Positions 1,077 to 29,474 of a stretch of DNA of 64,000 nt are shown here, in pieces. The stretch covers positions 248,001-312,000 of the forward strand of contig JABCZL010000008.1 of assembly GCA_013289685.1 (NCBI GenBank). Reading direction: 5' to 3'. This DNA is from Acidobacteriota bacterium (GTDB lineage: Bacteria; Acidobacteriota; Terriglobia; Terriglobales; Acidobacteriaceae). Below the pieces are notes generated by a model, which saw only the letters and a list, made by a program, of their open reading frames with translations, made no database searches and had not been told where the DNA came from. Both the position numbers and the translations under genes were made by a program. Numbering within the stretch: the first letter of the stretch is position 1; every line of letters begins with the position of its first letter.

Positions 1077-1697
1077 ATGGCAATCATCGTCATCGGCGGA
1101 CACTCTCGCAGCGTGGGCAAGACCAGCGTGGTCGCGGGCCTGATCTCCGCGTTGCCCGAGTTCCATTGGACCGCCGTCAAGATTACGCAGTACGGCCACG
1201 GCGTCTGTTCCGCGAACGGCCAGGCTTGCGACTGCGCGACCGCCGATCACTCGTGGGCAATTTCCGAAGAGCGCGACCGTTCCGGCAAGTCGGATACCTC
1301 CCGGTTCCTCATAGCCGGGGCCGCGCAAACCTTCTGGGTGCGGACGGAACAAGGCCGACTGGCCGAAGCGATGCCCGCCTTGCGGCAGCGCCTCGCGGAC
1401 GCGCGCAACGTGATCATCGAGTCGAACAGCGTGTTGAAGTTTCTCAAGCCGGATCTGTACTTGACTGTACTCGACCCCTCGACCGCGGATTTCAAGAATT
1501 CAGCGCGGGAATTCCTGGACCGCGCGAGCGCGGTAATTCTGCACCAAACTCCCGACAGCCTGGCGTGGCAATCCGTATCTCTGAAGCCGGTGGCCGGACG
1601 CCCGGTTTTCCGCATCACGCCGCCGCCCTACGTCACCGCAGAGATTGCAGACTTCGTCCGCTCAAGCCTCGGCGAGCGAGTGGCAGGCAGACCGTGA
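1077..1697 (+). CDS. MobB-like P-loop NTPase
   Basis: A 206-residue protein opening with a phosphate-binding loop, GGHSRSVGKTS at residues 7-17, followed by VVAGLISALP and a segment (VKITQYGHGVCSANG) like the region after the P-loop in MobB-type molybdopterin-guanine-dinucleotide accessory GTPases. A cysteine pair (CSANGQACDC) lies near residues 44-53. The later stretch VIIESNSVLKFLKPDLYLTVLD looks like the Walker B strand and base-recognition area of SIMIBI-class NTPases. No molybdenum-cofactor genes are next to it; it sits between lpxD and lnt, so a cofactor role is not supported by context. The P-loop is certain, the subfamily tentative. Confidence 0.7.
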   Translation: MAIIVIGGHSRSVGKTSVVAGLISALPEFHWTAVKITQYGHGVCSANGQACDCATADHSWAISEERDRSGKSDTSRFLIAGAAQTFWVRTEQGRLAEAMPALRQRLADARNVIIESNSVLKFLKPDLYLTVLDPSTADFKNSAREFLDRASAVILHQTPDSLAWQSVSLKPVAGRPVFRITPPPYVTAEIADFVRSSLGERVAGRP

Positions 1698-1749
1698 AGT
1701 AGAGATTCCCTCAGCGGCTTAAAGCCGTCATTCATCTCGCACGTCTCAC

Positions 1750-1776
1750 GGCGCGGCTGGAAGCCGCGCCCTTTCA
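1750..1776. repeat. REP-like palindrome GGCGCGGC..GCCGCGCC
   Basis: A short palindrome (GGCGCGGCTGGAAGCCGCGCC followed by CTTTCAA) that recurs in inverse orientation at 25723-25750. The surrounding gap 1698-1871 also holds AGCGGCTTAAAGCCG and reiterated GGCAACTGG units; no gene is visible in it. Confidence 0.7.
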
Positions 1777-1871
1777 AAACTCTCAAAACGCGCCTTTCAA
1801 GACGACGTCAGTCAGGTCCTCACTGGCAACTGGCAGCCGGCAACCGGCAACTGGGTACTGGCAACTGTCTT

Positions 1872-3494
1872 TTGCTATCCTTGCCCGTGCGGCAAATTCA
1901 CTTCAGCGCCTGGCTGCTGGTCGGGTTGTCGGCGATTCTTCAGGCCATCATCTTTCCGCTTCCCGGCGTTTATGTTCTCTCCTGGTTTGCGCTGGCTCCT
2001 CTGATCGTGGCCCTGCTTCGCGCGCGCTCCACGGGTGAACTCGAGGTTGCCGGTTCCGTCAGACTAAGCCCGGCCACGCCCGGGCAGGGATTTCTGTTGG
2101 GCTACGCTTGCGGAATCCTCTGGTACGCGGGCACGTGTTACTGGATCTACGACACCATGCGCCAGTTCGGCGGCCTGAGCACGCCCGAAGCGCTGCTGGC
2201 GCTGTTTCTCTTCTCTTGCTATCTCGGGTTGTATCACGGTTTTTTTGGTCTTTTAGTTAGCTTGCTGGCAGGGTCGGCCCGGGATTACCGGCGCCCGCTG
2301 GTGATGGCTCCGTTTCTGTGGGTCGCGGTGGAACTGGCGCGCACCCGGATCACGGGCTTTCCGTGGAACCTGCTCGGAATCGCGCAGGTTGACAACGTCG
2401 CGCTCTGCCGCATTGCGTCGGCTACCGGCGTCTACGGTATTTCGTTTGAGATTGTGCTGGTGAATGTCGCGTTGGCCGCGGCGTTTCTGGTTCCGCGGGA
2501 GAAGCGATTCCCCCTGCTGGCCGCGGCCCTGGCCGCCGCCGCCGTGCTGCAGGCCGGGAGACTGGTCGAAGCCCCTCCCGCGAAAGCCGACCATGCGGCG
2601 CTATTGGTGCAGCAGAATATTCCGGTTTCGTTCGACTGGACGCGGCCAGGGTCCTTGCAGCAGACAATGAATGAACTGACAGAACTCACGGTGAAATCGG
2701 CCGCAGAAAGTTCGGCGGCGAAAATCGATCTCATCGTCTGGCCCGAGTCGCCGGCGCCGTTCTTCACCAACGACCCACGATTTCGCGACACGATGAGTGA
2801 GTTGGCTCGCGACACCAAGACCTGGAACGTGGTCGGAGCGATTGGAACTTCATCGTCGGCGGCCGTCGGCGGGCAGACTTCGCCGTTGTACAACTCCGCG
2901 GCATTGATCAGCCCCAGCGGCGAATGGACGGCGCGTTACGACAAAATCCATCTCGTGCCCTTCGGCGAGTATCTGCCCTTCCCGAGCGTGTTCTCGTTTG
3001 CCGGGGGCCTGACCAAGGCAGTCGGCGAGTTTCAGCGGGGCACATCGCGCCGGCCTCTGGACGCGGGCGACGCGCGCCTCGGCGTCTTCATCTGCTACGA
3101 GTCCATCTTCCCGGATGAAGTCCGGCAGTTCGCCGATCAGGGTGCGCAAGTATTCGTGAACATTTCGAACGACGGATGGTACGGCGACAGCGGCGCTTAC
3201 GCGCAGCACCTGAACCAGACCCGCATGCGCGCCATCGAGAACAACCGCTGGCTGCTGAGCGCAACCGACACCGGGGTCACGGCGTCGATCGACCCCTGGG
3301 GACGCGTGGTGGCGCAAATCCCCCGCAAGCAGCGGGCGGCCCTGGTCGCGCCCTATGCCCTCACTTCCGTCACTACTTTCTATGCCCGCCACGGCGACTG
3401 GTTCGCGTATGGGTGTGCGATAATTTCATTGGGAGCGCTGCTCGCGCGCTTTACACTCCCCGGGAAACCGCTCCAAAAATCGCAAAAAGGCTGA
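1872..3494 (+). CDS. lnt: Apolipoprotein N-acyltransferase
   Basis: Lnt transfers a third acyl chain to the N-terminal cysteine of lipoproteins in the inner membrane. The 540-residue protein has several hydrophobic helices in its first ~230 residues, then a nitrilase-fold periplasmic domain and a final C-terminal membrane helix. The catalytic Glu-Lys-Cys triad is readable: E292 in VWPESPAP, K358 in YDKIHLVPFGEYLP and C408 in FICYESIFPDE. The spacings (66 and 50) closely match those of the E. coli enzyme (68 and 52). The start is a TTG; no good ATG lies nearby, so the exact N-terminus is uncertain. It ends 9 bases before prfB. Confidence 0.95.
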   Translation: MLSLPVRQIHFSAWLLVGLSAILQAIIFPLPGVYVLSWFALAPLIVALLRARSTGELEVAGSVRLSPATPGQGFLLGYACGILWYAGTCYWIYDTMRQFGGLSTPEALLALFLFSCYLGLYHGFFGLLVSLLAGSARDYRRPLVMAPFLWVAVELARTRITGFPWNLLGIAQVDNVALCRIASATGVYGISFEIVLVNVALAAAFLVPREKRFPLLAAALAAAAVLQAGRLVEAPPAKADHAALLVQQNIPVSFDWTRPGSLQQTMNELTELTVKSAAESSAAKIDLIVWPESPAPFFTNDPRFRDTMSELARDTKTWNVVGAIGTSSSAAVGGQTSPLYNSAALISPSGEWTARYDKIHLVPFGEYLPFPSVFSFAGGLTKAVGEFQRGTSRRPLDAGDARLGVFICYESIFPDEVRQFADQGAQVFVNISNDGWYGDSGAYAQHLNQTRMRAIENNRWLLSATDTGVTASIDPWGRVVAQIPRKQRAALVAPYALTSVTTFYARHGDWFAYGCAIISLGALLARFTLPGKPLQKSQKG

Positions 3495-3503
3495 CGCGTC
3501 CTC

Positions 3504-4605
3504 ATGAATCAAGAGTTGGTGCTGGAATACGAAAAACTCAGCAAGAAGGTCCACGAACTTCGGGAGTATCTTTGACGCGGAGAAAGTCCGTCCGCAGCTA
3601 GCCGAAATTGAAAAGCAGTCCGCCGACCCGAATCTGTGGTCGAATCCGCAGCGATCCCAGCAGGTCATGCGCGAGAAAAAGCGCTTGGAGCACGTGCTCG
3701 CCACCGACGCCGATCTCGCCCGCCGCGGCGACGACATTGCCGCATACTTCGACCTGTCCAAAGAAGGCGAGAACGTTGACGCCGATTTGCAGCGCGAAAT
3801 CGGCGCCCTGCGCGAGTTGCTCGACCGCCTCGAAACCGAGACGCTGCTCTCGGGCGAGAACGATGCGCGCAACGCCATCGTCACCATCCATCCCGGTGCG
3901 GGCGGCACCGAGTCGCAGGATTGGGCCGACATGCTGCTGCGCATGTACTTGAGATGGGCCGAGCGGCAGCGGTTTGAGACCGTTCTCTACGACTACCAGC
4001 CGGGCGAAGAAGCGGGGCTGAAGTCGGCGACGTTCGCGGTCAACGGCGAATACGCCTTCGGACTTTTGCAAAGTGAAATTGGAGTCCATCGCCTGGTGCG
4101 CATTTCGCCCTTCGATCAGGCCAAGCGCCGGCATACGTCGTTTGCCAGCGTTTACGTCTCGCCGGAGATCGACGAGAGCATTGAGATTGTCATCAAGCCG
4201 GAAGATATCCGCATCGATACGTACCGCTCCAGCGGCAAGGGCGGACAGCACGTGAACACCACAGATTCTGCCGTGCGCATCACGCACATTGCGACGAACC
4301 TGGTCGCCAACTGCCAGAATGAGCGCTCGCAGCACAAAAACAAAGAGCGCGCCATGAGCATGCTGCGTTCGAAGCTCTACGAATTCGAGATGGAGAAGAA
4401 GCGCGCGGCTACTAAGAAAATCGAAGACTCGAAACTCGACATCGAATTCGGATCGCAGATCCGTTCCTACGTGCTGCAGCCCTACCGGATGATCAAGGAT
4501 CACCGCACCAAGACCGAGGTCGGCGACGTCGATCGAGTGCTCGACGGCGATCTGCAGCCATTCATTCGGGCGTATCTGCTGGCGCGGCGCGGAGAGAAGC
4601 AGTAG
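3504..4605 (+). CDS. prfB: Peptide chain release factor 2, programmed +1 frameshift
   Basis: RF2 recognises UGA and UAA stop codons and triggers peptide release on the ribosome. The gene is in two frames: 23 codons from ATG 3504 reach an in-frame TGA at 3573-3575, and the remaining frame resumes at GAC 3574 and runs to 4605, for a product of about 366 residues, normal for RF2. The slip site reads GGGAGTATCTTTGAC, the classic CTT-TGA-C with a purine-rich stretch upstream. The protein shows the stop-codon-reading tripeptide in RISPFD and the catalytic GGQ in SSGKGGQHVN. It follows lnt directly. Annotating only the second frame would lose the true N-terminus. Confidence 0.96.
3561..3576 (+). promoter_or_regulatory. 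prfB autoregulatory +1 frameshift site
   Basis: CGGGAGTATCTTTGAC: a Shine-Dalgarno-like purine tract (GGGAG), the slippery CTT codon, and UGA followed by C. When RF2 is scarce, the ribosome pauses at UGA and slips forward one base, allowing full-length RF2 synthesis. This is well established for the family; here the upstream tract is CGGGAG where the commonest form is AGGGGG. Confidence 0.93.
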
Positions 4606-26921: not shown

Positions 26922-27121
26922 ATTCGCGAGAGACTCCCCCTCGGGTTTTCCACAACCCAATGTGACATCTGACCTTGACCCCAAAACTCAAACAGCAGAT
27001 CATGGTCAAGGCGGAGGCGGTGCCCGCAGAAATCCCGAGCCAGACTCTAACTCCTTTGTTCTCAAGATTTTGACCTCTAAACCCTTGGGGCTCAAGATTT
27101 TGCAGACCATTTTTGCAAACC

Positions 27122-27147
27122 GGTAATAAACTAGTTGACACACATGT
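27122..27147 (+). repeat. IS1595 element left terminal inverted repeat
   Basis: 26 bp starting GGTAATAAACTAGTTGAC, paired with 29276-29301 in inverse orientation. Preceded by TGCAAACC (27114-27121), one copy of the target duplication. Confidence 0.92.
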
Positions 27148-27163
27148 GCGCTTCTGGTATCGT
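27135..27163 (+). promoter_or_regulatory. Probable transposase promoter
   Basis: TTGACA at 27135-27140, a 17-base spacer, then TATCGT at 27158-27163. The -35 lies inside the left inverted repeat, so transposase expression and end recognition would compete. The transposase ATG follows 7 bases after the -10, which would leave little or no leader. Confidence 0.55.
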
Positions 27164-27170
27164 TTTCTGT

Positions 27171-28220
27171 ATGGACGCACCGAACAGCCTTCCCGAGCCG
27201 AAAACGCTCCAAGAAGCGATTACATACTTTGCCGATCCTGACCGGGCTTTCCAGTTTGCCAAGGGCCTTCGCTGGCCGGATGGAAACGTGGTCTGCCCGC
27301 GCTGCGGAGTCGCTAAAAACTCGTTCATCAAAACGCGCCGCCTGTGGTTCTGCTACGCCTGCAAGAAGCAGTTCACGGTCAAGGTTAAGACGATCATGGA
27401 AGATTCGCCTATCGGTCTTGACAAGTGGATGACGGCGTTTTGGCTGCTGGCCAATGCCAAGAATGGAATCAGTTCGCATGAACTGGGCCGCGCTCTGGGA
27501 GTAACGCAAACGACGGCATGGTTCATGCTTCAGCGGATTCGTGAGGTTATGAAGGGCCGCAAGTTTGGTAATACGACCAAGATCGGCGGATCGGGTAGCG
27601 AAGTCGAGGCGGACGAAACCTTCGTCGGCGGGAAGGTTCGCAATATGCATAAGGCGCGTCGGCAACGATTCGTGAAAGAGGAAGGATTCGCTGGAGCCGC
27701 AACGGGAAAGACTGTGGTGCATGGGATGCTTGACCGGAATCTGCGTCAGGTCCGTGCTCAGGTTGTGCCGAATGTGAAGCGCGAAACGCTGCAAAATATT
27801 CTTCTGAAAAATATCAAATACGGCACCAAGGTCTATACCGATGACGCCGTAGCTTACACGCGAGACATGAACTGGCGATTCGTGCATGATTTCGTGAACA
27901 AGACTGAAAGTTATGTAAAGGGCCGCGTGCATGTGAACGGCATGGAAAATTTCTGGTCGCTGCTCAAGAGAGCACTGCGCGGAACCTACGTTGCTGTTGA
28001 GCCGTTCCATCTTTCACGCTACGTTGACGAACAGGTTTTTCGGTACAACAACCGCAAAGACGAGGAAGGCCGAAAGATCACCGATGCAGAGCGTTTTGCC
28101 ACGGTCATGTCGGACGTTCTCGGCCATCGTCTCACCTATAGCGATCTCACGGGCAAGAGTGACTCGCCACATCACGCGCCGACAGGGACGGGGACGGCGC
28201 AAGTCAAAGAACCGCTCTAA
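27171..28220 (+). CDS. IS1595-family (ISXO2-like) transposase
   Basis: A 349-residue DDE transposase. An N-terminal zinc ribbon (C42-x2-C45 in VVCPRCG and C61-x2-C64 in FCYACKKQF) precedes a helix-turn-helix-like segment (GISSHELGRALGVTQTTAWFMLQRIREVM). The catalytic DDE_Tnp_IS1595 core follows with D148 in EADETFVGGK, D224 or D225 in VYTDDAVAY, and E259 (or N256) in VNGMENFWSLLKR. The frame is intact, so the element may be active. ATG 27171 is preferred because an in-frame TTG at 27135 is the promoter -35 box. Its stop codon overlaps that of the convergent 50-residue gene. Confidence 0.93.
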   Translation: MDAPNSLPEPKTLQEAITYFADPDRAFQFAKGLRWPDGNVVCPRCGVAKNSFIKTRRLWFCYACKKQFTVKVKTIMEDSPIGLDKWMTAFWLLANAKNGISSHELGRALGVTQTTAWFMLQRIREVMKGRKFGNTTKIGGSGSEVEADETFVGGKVRNMHKARRQRFVKEEGFAGAATGKTVVHGMLDRNLRQVRAQVVPNVKRETLQNILLKNIKYGTKVYTDDAVAYTRDMNWRFVHDFVNKTESYVKGRVHVNGMENFWSLLKRALRGTYVAVEPFHLSRYVDEQVFRYNNRKDEEGRKITDAERFATVMSDVLGHRLTYSDLTGKSDSPHHAPTGTGTAQVKEPL

Positions 28221-28369
28221 TCCCTGTCGGATCTCGGCGCTTTCTTTCCAGAAGCAGGTTTCTTAACCTGCTTCTTCTTATTTTTCGGATTCGCCTGTAG
28301 AATTGCGCCCGCAAGCGCCTTGAAGCTCTCCAGCGCTTCCGGTCCTTCCCTGTATTCGGGTGTTTTCAT
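28217..28369 (-). CDS. 50-residue basic protein inside the IS1595 element
   Basis: ATG at 28369, stop TAG at 28217-28219, overlapping the transposase stop on the other strand. The product begins MKTPEYREGPEALESFKALA and ends in a Lys-rich tail (NPKNKKKQVKKPASGKKAPR). GAGAGG lies ~14 bases upstream of the ATG. I recall similar short TPEYREGPEA-type proteins beside transposases in other bacteria, but cannot check that here. Strongly basic, so it may bind nucleic acid. Function unknown; not a shadow of the transposase, since it lies beyond its end. Confidence 0.65.
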   Translation of the reverse strand: MKTPEYREGPEALESFKALAGAILQANPKNKKKQVKKPASGKKAPRSDRD

Positions 28370-28395
28370 AGGTCTAGTAGCCTCTCAATCGCATT

Positions 28396-29226
28396 ATGGA
28401 CGAAATAGATGCTAACGGCCAGCAGCATGATTCCGATAGTCGGCTGGACCTTGCCGGAAAAGGAATCGAACACAATCCACCACCCCAACAAACTAATCCC
28501 CAAGAACAGCCCAAACAAGGCAGCGGCAAGCTCCAAGAGGCGAAGATTGCGATGAGAGACTGGCTGTGGGCGCATTATCAGAGCTGGAAAAAAGAAGAAA
28601 CGCACGACAAGCTGAATACCCTCTTCACCTTTGCTATTGCCACAGCAACGATTGTGTATGTGATTGTTGCCAGTTGCCAACTGGGAGAGATGAAGAGAAC
28701 TACTGATTTGATCCGGCATCAACTGGCAAGCGGCATACCTGCAATAGTAGTTCCCAATATTTCCTATGAGAAGCCGAATCAAATTCAGGTCTCTTTGACC
28801 AATAGCGGAAAGAGCGTTTCCAAAATCGCAACACTTGAATTGGTTGTTACCAGAATCGACCCGAGTTCCAACAACCCAATGGGGCCATCGCAGTTGGAGA
28901 CCTACAGCAGACAGCAACTTCTTCCCGAGAAGCCCACCAGTCCAACTCTTATAATCATCCAGGGACTGGACGATTCCGGATTGGAATCTATTCGCAAAAA
29001 CAGGGAAACGATAGTCATAAAAGGGAAAAATGTTTTCGACAACGGATTTGGTGACATAGTAACGGTCGATAACGAAGAGGATACCTGCTGGCAACTTGCA
29101 GCAAATCGCAGCATCACCGACGGAAAACGTATAGCCGTGGTTGGCAATCTTACGACTTGCAGATTGGCCCGAGAAACTATCCACTCCTACCAAGAGGAGG
29201 ACAAGAAAAGCAATGATTGGCAATAA
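28396..29226 (+). CDS. Passenger single-pass membrane protein of the IS element
   Basis: A 276-residue protein. It opens with a polar, Gln/Pro-rich region (~60 residues), then WLWAHYQSWKKEETHDKLN, a transmembrane helix at about residues 73-95 (NTLFTFAIATATIVYVIVASC), and a ~180-residue C-terminal domain with beta character (ISYEKPNQIQVSLTNSGKSVSKIATLELVVTRID). Base composition is visibly more AT-rich than the flanking genes, consistent with recent arrival with the element. No transposase motif and no family recognised. It lies wholly within the inverted repeats, 27 bases beyond the start of the minus-strand 50-residue gene. Confidence 0.8.
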   Translation: MDEIDANGQQHDSDSRLDLAGKGIEHNPPPQQTNPQEQPKQGSGKLQEAKIAMRDWLWAHYQSWKKEETHDKLNTLFTFAIATATIVYVIVASCQLGEMKRTTDLIRHQLASGIPAIVVPNISYEKPNQIQVSLTNSGKSVSKIATLELVVTRIDPSSNNPMGPSQLETYSRQQLLPEKPTSPTLIIIQGLDDSGLESIRKNRETIVIKGKNVFDNGFGDIVTVDNEEDTCWQLAANRSITDGKRIAVVGNLTTCRLARETIHSYQEEDKKSNDWQ

Positions 29227-29275
29227 CCATAGACACACTGCTGCCCCGTCACCAAGCCAATCTAGCGTAAAAAGT

Positions 29276-29301
29276 ACATGTGCGTCAACTAGGTTATTGC
29301 C
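29276..29301 (-). repeat. IS1595 element right terminal inverted repeat
   Basis: The inverse of 27122-27147 with 3 mismatches, followed immediately by TGCAAACC (29302-29309), the second copy of the target duplication. Confidence 0.92.
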
Positions 29302-29474
29302 TGCAAACCCCGCGCCAGTCGCGGCATTCAAAGGGGTGGGGGGAGGGGGGTACCCCTCGAACCCCGCGATTTTCCCAAAACGAACTCGCCAAAAAAGGGC
29401 TCATGAACGCCTCTCCACCAGAAATTTTTTCTGCAGGTTTCGTTACAATGAAAACAGGTTTCTGTGAGTCCCAA

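What the first reader, a model, noticed from the sequence alone, without database searches (positions are those of the whole stretch)
27114..29309. Complete IS1595-type element with perfect 8-bp target duplication and cargo
The sequence shows 26-bp terminal inverted repeats with 3 mismatches, TGCAAACC on both outer sides, an intact DDE transposase and two further genes inside. Established knowledge: IS1595-family elements make 8-bp duplications and some carry passenger genes. Inference: it inserted recently ~170 bp upstream of mqnC, into a repeat-rich spacer, because its duplication has no mutations.
Basis: partly seen in the sequence, partly recalled or inferred. Interest (0 to 1): 0.65.

Follow-up and report, generated by a model that had tools for sequence, protein, structure and literature searches.

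The report
Jumping gene with swappable cargo slot
A 2.2-kb mobile DNA element jumped into a repeated stretch just upstream of a probable vitamin K2 biosynthesis gene in a soil bacterium, and it belongs to a widespread group whose members keep the same kind of transposase and an undescribed tiny protein while swapping the other genes they carry.

Summary
Window 27122-29301 is a 2180-bp IS1595-family element with 28-bp inverted repeats (4 mismatches), an intact DDE transposase and TGCAAACC on both sides. It is the only copy in the 6.85-Mb draft. A congener and three other copies of the spacer repeat in the same genome lack it, with one octamer at the site, exact in two and altered by one or two bases in two. 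The interpretation needs correcting. One 'passenger', the 50-aa minus-strand gene, is a lineage-specific core gene: its family occurs in 109 of 115 delimited elements, and within 4 kb of 79 of 88 listed related transposases but 0 of 60 more distant ones. It has no NCBIfam match and no Pfam match shared by two members (26 scanned). Its divergence tracks the transposase; DUF3800 cargo does not. Most pairs compared share a 1.0-1.27-kb core but no cargo DNA. So this is a carrier IS1595 transposon with a fixed core and an exchangeable slot. Cargo is often toxin- or defence-like, but enrichment is not shown. By eye, ten elements lie in one type of dispersed G-rich repeat. A perfect TSD alone does not prove recency.

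The parts
27048..27121 (+). Left part of the dispersed intergenic repeat that was the target
   Evidence: Aligns to three other copies in the own genome (L304-L306) and to the G016 orthologue
27114..27121 (.). Left target-site duplication TGCAAACC
   Evidence: a single octamer in the empty sites: exact in L036 and L304, one base different in L306, two in L305
27122..27149 (+). Left terminal inverted repeat, 28 bp
   Evidence: left-end consensus GGcAAtaATaTACTTGACtcAcc over 115 elements (printed before that script failed)
27135..27140 (+). -35 box (TTGACA) inside the left TIR
   Evidence: TTGAC at this position in 113 of 115 left ends
27158..27163 (+). -10 box of the transposase promoter (TATCGT, 17-bp spacer)
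   Evidence: Mean TATAAT match peaks at spacer 17 in 113 left ends (3.83 of 6); best of spacers 16-18 averages 4.12 against 2.60 for shuffles, highest of 300 shuffles 2.84
27171..28220 (+). IS1595-family transposase, 349 aa
   Evidence: PF12762, PF12760, NF033547; DDE and zinc-ribbon cysteines in place
28217..28369 (-). Lineage-specific small protein, 50 aa, tail-to-tail with the transposase (stop codons overlap by 4 bp)
   Evidence: Family in 109 of 115 elements, the same stop overlap in 53 of 109, dN/dS 0.21 pooled over 11 pairs, one of them saturated
28396..29226 (+). Cargo gene of this element: 276-aa protein with one predicted transmembrane helix and a beta-rich domain
   Evidence: Profile seeded from 10 other cargo proteins matches it at 3.2e-6; AlphaFold2 model, mean pLDDT 66; no Pfam family reached its cut-off
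29274..29301 (-). Right terminal inverted repeat, 28 bp
29302..29309 (.). Right target-site duplication TGCAAACC
29310..29382 (+). Right part of the target repeat, with the G-rich tract

Best explanation
This is a complete carrier transposon of the IS1595 family. Shown: a fixed core (left TIR with a built-in promoter, transposase, small gene) is joined to an exchangeable slot closed by a short right TIR. The core moves through evolution as a unit while the slot content changes. Insertion makes an 8-bp duplication and prefers CTAATTAG-like octamers; in Acidobacteriota, several members sit in one type of dispersed G-rich intergenic repeat. This copy entered such a repeat upstream of mqnC. Inferred: the transposase acts on both TIRs by DDE chemistry. 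The small protein (one short helix plus a basic tail) most likely works with the transposase, as a regulator or end-binding co-factor. New cargo is gained when the left core becomes paired with another right end, for example that of a neighbouring element. The cargo of this copy, a single-span membrane protein, probably benefits the host or helps retain the element; its function is not known.
For: TIR and TSD. Empty sites in a congener and in three repeat copies of the same genome. Small protein in 109 of 115 elements, against 3 ORFs (4 domain hits) in 964 kb of flanks. Within 4 kb of 79 of 88 listed transposase matches at 45% identity or more, 0 of 60 below; 0 of 20 in a separate check of distant loci. 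Distances: transposase-small r 0.42, 0 of 2000 permutations as high, 102 elements. In 29 DUF3800-carrying elements: transposase-small 0.38 (0 of 5000), transposase-cargo 0.005 (2164 of 5000), small-cargo -0.007 (2744 of 5000). Module breakpoints: in 13 of 15 pairs compared the core aligns but no cargo-length DNA does, and in 7 of these 13 the last 25-67 bp align again, e.g. L090/L098 and this element/L065. Different cargo on closely related transposases: L091 and L096, branches 0.014 and 0.036, core DNA 88% identical. Target data.
Against: No transposition was observed, and the own genome holds one copy. Six of 115 elements have no recognisable small gene. 18 of 95 small-protein hits have no listed transposase within 4 kb. 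Of 16 of these fetched, 2 show transposase fragments (L293, L294); of 13 inspected for neighbours, 3 (L287, L289, L292) sit directly next to a DUF3800 gene, which fits a cargo-linked role as well. In 43 of 104 elements a same-strand ORF of 100 aa or more lies directly upstream of the small gene, in 11 with a 4-bp overlap (some of these ORFs are antisense to the likely cargo). In four smaller cargo groups (5-10 elements) the transposase-cargo correlation ranged from -0.30 to 0.38, with 88 to 1603 of 2000 permutations as high, so one group of 10 is borderline. Two of 15 pairs do share cargo DNA (L090/L099, L079/L117). The elements were found by transposase similarity and kept only with both ends and an identical TSD, so decayed ones are under-counted.
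Confidence: 0.8

Rival explanations
1. The small protein serves the cargo, not the transposase: for instance a general antitoxin or regulator that makes harmful cargo tolerable.
For: Solitary small genes next to DUF3800 genes without a transposase (L287, L289, L292); one in-frame fusion of a DUF3800 protein with the small domain (L070); a same-strand ORF directly upstream in 43 of 104.
Against: The same small-protein family accompanies many unrelated cargo types. Its divergence tracks the transposase and not DUF3800. In this element it is divergent from the cargo, not in an operon with it.
Confidence: 0.2
2. An ordinary IS1595 element with two chance passengers; the small gene is simply one more hitch-hiker.
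For: IS1595 elements with passengers are known (ISNha5, as mentioned in PMC11891212, passages seen).
Against: 109 of 115 elements carry the small gene; 0 of 60 more distant transposase matches have it nearby; purifying selection.
Confidence: 0.05
3. The insertion is old rather than recent, and G016 lost its copy or the locus was replaced by recombination between repeat copies.
For: The TSD is only 8 bp and cannot date the event; several copies of the spacer repeat exist and could recombine.
Against: G016 keeps the flanks on both sides with a single octamer and no footprint, and the three genes of the element are open.
Confidence: 0.2

Closest known systems
IS1595 family (DDE_Tnp_IS1595 plus zinc ribbon)
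   Same: Transposase domains, TIRs, 8-bp TSD; family features as stated in PMC8101967 (passages)
   Different: That paper says members have a single transposase gene; here each of 115 elements has at least 646 bp after the transposase and 109 of 115 have the small gene
Transporter IS (tIS) such as ISNha5, an IS1595 member
   Same: Passenger genes between the TIRs (PMC11891212, passages; the primary source, Siguier 2009, is known to me only from reference lists and recall)
   Different: ISNha5 is mentioned there as carrying transcription regulators. A conserved extra core gene plus an exchangeable slot is not mentioned in the passages seen. ISfinder could not be compared
Tn7-like transposons with defence cargo
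   Same: Works alike: conserved transposition core, varied cargo including toxin-antitoxin and defence genes (PMC8649781, abstract)
   Different: Different transposition machinery and target choice (recalled); here one transposase gene and 1.7-5.9 kb in total
Distant IS1595 elements of related hosts (30-38% identity to this transposase)
   Same: 14 of 20 loci could be delimited: 8-bp TSD, 1.9-3.6 kb, so also carriers; 13 of the 14 left ends hold CTTGAC (no mismatched-end control run)
   Different: No small protein found in 20 loci

Membership tests
IS1595 family | DDE_Tnp_IS1595 catalytic domain with intact DDE | tested here: met
   PF12762 3e-35, NF033547 3.8e-48; D148, D224, E259. That these are the catalytic residues rests on their invariance in 16 sequences and recalled family knowledge
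IS1595 family | N-terminal zinc ribbon (all groups but IS1016, per PMC8101967) | tested here: met
   PF12760 3.7e-14; C42, C45, C61, C64
IS1595 family | 8-bp target duplication and terminal inverted repeats | tested here: met
IS1595 family | One transposase gene read without frameshift | tested here: met
   Single open frame 27171-28220
IS1595 family, named ISfinder subgroup | Assignment to ISPna2, ISH4, IS1595, IS1016, ISSod11, ISNwi1 or ISNha5 | not testable with these tools
   ISfinder is not available; in 25 listed plasmid records of 330 the best identity is 38.5% and the annotation gives only the family name
Transporter IS (tIS) | Passenger gene not needed for transposition between the TIRs | tested here: inconclusive
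   The 276-aa gene is replaced in related elements, so it behaves as cargo; dispensability was not tested
Anti-phage defence cargo (for this copy) | Match of the cargo to a PADLOC family | tested here: not met
   0 PADLOC families at 1e-3 for the 276-aa protein

The most novel reading that the evidence does not exclude
A cross-phylum lineage of compact transposons uses a dedicated, undescribed small basic protein as a near-obligate partner of its transposase. This partner, or the short right end, lets the core re-pair with new right ends and so pick up and pass on toxin- and defence-like genes, landing preferentially in dispersed intergenic repeats that serve as safe harbours.
Probability: 0.35. 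Interest if true: 0.78.

Novelty: new variant of a known kind. Interest (0 to 1): 0.6.

Why it matters
Small one-transposase elements are usually seen as selfish DNA with occasional passengers. Here is a clade, seen in nine phyla by record titles and on contigs called viral, in which a core unit plus exchangeable slot is the norm. That makes it a simple system for asking how transposons acquire cargo, and a search handle (TIR plus small protein) for finding new toxin and defence genes. The small protein is a testable candidate transposition factor. Insertion into dispersed repeats suggests a way to avoid damaging the host.

Tried and rejected
Rfam: no RNA family in the element and its near flanks at E up to 1; in 11 of the DUF3800 loci only one RNase P and one tRNA, both outside the element, so the DUF3800-associated RNA motifs (recalled) are not seen. 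AlphaFold2 of the small protein gives one helix (residues 10-24) and a low-confidence tail, mean pLDDT 70, pTM 0.34. The cargo model has no PDB match at E 0.001. Solved structures: none related by sequence to the transposase or the small protein. A right-end promoter is unclear: 57 of 115 right ends keep TTGAC, with a weaker -10 signal (3.40 against 2.33 shuffled).

Defence enrichment was tested crudely and not shown: PADLOC matched 173 families in 149 element ORFs and 151 families in 149 flank ORFs. The flank set is not matched in length or number of real genes (longest ORF of 130-450 aa per flank, loci only, 149 of 156), and the element set includes spurious ORFs. The Pfam make-up does differ: DUF3800 in 18, RelA_SpoT in 5 and Panacea in 3 of the 149 element ORFs; none of these is among the families that match two or more of the 149 flank ORFs (25 of 130 families shown, ranked by members). 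The element set had 176 ORFs; 27 short ones were left out before the scan. 6 duplicate elements were dropped. Of 36 long transposase loci, 6 gave no convincing pair of ends and were dropped; 3 more held short fragments only; that set had no mismatched-end control. One search used only the 148 transposase and 95 small-protein matches that searches listed; one search says that more were not listed, and some matches may be fragments of one gene. In the cluster labels L099 was wrongly labelled DUF3800 through a short antisense ORF (seen); the clean profile list was used. I first looked for TTGAC one base off (script failed part-way) and corrected it. A CCTTTG motif near the sites gave 7 of 115 against 4% of background windows and was replaced by the comparison of whole sites. 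The iterated membrane-cargo profile gave this cargo 1.4e-30 but includes it in the model; the seed-only value is the one used.

Full report
What is there. The element spans window 27122-29301 (2180 bp). Its ends form a 28-bp inverted repeat with 4 mismatches, and TGCAAACC, present only twice in the window, flanks it directly. The transposase (27171-28220) carries the IS1595 zinc ribbon and DDE domain with the expected residues. A 50-aa gene on the minus strand (28217-28369) meets it tail to tail, stop codons overlapping by 4 bp. A 276-aa gene (28396-29226, +) fills the rest. The G+C content is 51% against 59% for the window.

Insertion shown by empty sites. The congener G016 has the same spacer in front of mqnC, reading through one TGCAAACC (L036). 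The spacer itself is a repeat: three further copies in the own genome (L304-L306) also read through one such octamer, exact in L304, with one base changed in L306 and two in L305. The genome holds no second copy of the element and no other match to the IS1595 DDE family. The perfect TSD by itself does not date the event, since 8 bp would often survive even since the split from G016.

A family with a fixed core. Related transposases were taken from relatives, from named genomes (best 80 of at least 560 loci) and from viral contigs (best 80 of 440). With both ends and an identical TSD required, 30 elements (this one included) came from the first set (30 of 36 long loci) and 91 of 160 from the other two; in 160 mismatched-end controls none reached the lowest accepted score of 16, two reached 15. 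Without 6 duplicates that leaves 115 elements of 1702-5904 bp, median 2520. By record title the named ones come from nine phyla, mostly Acidobacteriota (34 of 51 with a phylum); five of the nine phyla are represented by one contig each, so mis-binned contigs are possible. 33 lie on contigs called viral. Every one has at least 646 bp after the transposase.

The small protein. An iterated profile finds it in 109 of 115 elements and in 3 ORFs of 964 kb of flanks; the six without it include the single Gemmatimonadota and Bacteroidota elements (L143, L163). 53 of 109 have the 4-bp stop overlap; 27 of 109 are on the same strand as the transposase. In 101 genomes it lies within 4 kb of 79 of 88 listed transposase matches at 45% identity or more, and of 0 of 60 below. 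A separate look at 20 distant loci found none, although these elements also carry extra DNA. It evolves under purifying selection (dN/dS 0.21 pooled over 11 pairs, one of them saturated). Nine Pfam models matched one member each of 26 (best E 0.0033), none matched two, and no NCBIfam model matched. The model is one helix plus a basic tail.

Core against cargo. The distance of the small protein follows that of the transposase (r 0.42, 0 of 2000 permutations, 102 elements). In 29 elements with DUF3800 cargo the transposase-small link stays (0.38, 0 of 5000), while transposase-cargo (0.005) and small-cargo (-0.007) links are absent. Four smaller cargo groups are too small to decide: transposase-cargo r -0.30 to 0.38, 88 to 1603 of 2000 as high. 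Pairwise DNA comparison shows the break: this element and L065 share positions 1-1250 at 78% and the last 26 bp at 88%, nothing between; L090 and L098 share 1-1226 at 80% and the last 25 bp at 100%, with an ATPase plus DUF3226 pair in one and DUF433 plus DUF5615-like genes in the other. Of 15 pairs, 13 show no cargo-length alignment and 7 of these align again at the end; two share cargo DNA. On the transposase tree, close neighbours can carry different cargo (L091 RusA-like, L096 DUF3800).

Cargo. 87 of 115 elements fall in a recognised group: DUF3800-like 29, single-span membrane proteins 15 (this element included), two unnamed groups of 10 each, RusA-like 6 (a weak label: Pfam E 0.034, below cut-off), RelA/SpoT 5, Panacea 3, AAA_15 plus DUF3226 2, DUF4145 2, SspD-like 2, and single cases (for the smaller groups some members are placed by similarity rather than by a family match of their own). 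Some match PADLOC models strongly: PDC-S33 for RelA/SpoT (2e-118), AbiLi and AriA for the ATPase, SspD, AbiU, and a pAgo-related model for an AlbA protein. The raw PADLOC tally gives no enrichment over flank ORFs (173 against 151 families), so a defence bias is an impression, not a result. DUF3800 itself has been linked elsewhere to Cas12a2 and a predicted RNase H fold (PMC10910872, passages). The own cargo has no PADLOC match. Its model shows a transmembrane helix and a beta-rich domain at moderate confidence. The seed profile of other membrane cargo finds it at 3.2e-6, and its only homologue in the 100 other genomes searched (G057, 28% identity) lies near a weak, partial small-protein hit at a contig end and a TIR-like end.

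Promoter and target. The left TIR holds TTGAC in 113 of 115 elements, followed 17 bp later by a conserved -10 box: the transposase promoter is partly inside the TIR. TSDs favour C at position 1 (57 of 115), G at position 8 (58 of 115) and A or T at positions 2, 6 and 7; CTAA or TTAG occurs in 30 of 115 against about 1% of background octamers. In the genome search set 8 of 30 insertions, this one among them, have a G-rich tract within 70 bp (background 5 of 2280 windows); among the other Acidobacteriota 5 of 34 (14 of 2560); in the remaining genome-contig loci 1 of 18 (7 of 1360); on viral contigs 0 of 33 (9 of 2640). By eye on the sites printed, which were picked for that tract, ten (this one, L065, L066, L069, L070, L079, L091, L096, L105, L117) line up at one position of a shared intergenic repeat. 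The own octamer does not fit the CTAATTAG trend.

How it probably works. Shown: mobility in the past, core-plus-slot structure, core co-inheritance, target bias. Inferred: the DDE transposase recognises both TIRs; the small protein assists or restrains it; cargo changes when the core pairs with a different right end. The rival, a cargo-serving small protein, is kept at 0.2 because solitary small genes next to DUF3800 genes exist.

Literature. Eight of ten paper searches asked about IS1595, its passengers, or cargo; two concerned DUF3800. None of the listed titles and abstract openings describes this small gene or this architecture, but three of the lists were capped at 20 (of 32, 34 and 180 papers). 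The library lacks most subscription papers, among them Siguier 2009 as far as these searches show, so absence from print is not claimed.

Noticed in passing
window 27048-27121 and 29310-29382; L304, L305, L306: Dispersed intergenic repeat with two CTAA(G/C)TCCTTTG...AAGATTTTG-like units and a GGGGGGAGGGGGG tract; four copies in the own genome counting this one, plus weaker partial matches.
   Followed up: partly
L292 about 3028-4514: Possible non-autonomous relative: TIR-like ends 1487 bp apart, octamers matching 7 of 8, DUF3800 gene and small gene but no transposase.
   Followed up: partly
L287, L289: DUF3800 gene followed by the small gene with no transposase and no TIR-like end above the scan threshold: relics or an independent operon.
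   Followed up: partly
L265-L284: A more distant IS1595 lineage in related hosts also carries extra DNA (14 of 20 loci delimited, 1.9-3.6 kb, 8-bp TSDs) but lacks the small gene.
   Followed up: partly
L185-L264: 33 complete elements of this lineage lie on contigs called viral (IMG/VR), so they may travel on phages; the viral calls were not checked.
   Followed up: no
L097 (element-internal 1250-3436): RelA/SpoT-like gene together with a Panacea antitoxin-like gene, resembling a toxin-antitoxin pair as cargo.
   Followed up: no
L070:615-1799:+: DUF3800 protein fused in frame to the small-protein domain at its C-terminus.
   Followed up: no
L236: Largest delimited element, 5.9 kb with several long genes on the minus strand; three of them have no Pfam match.
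   Followed up: no
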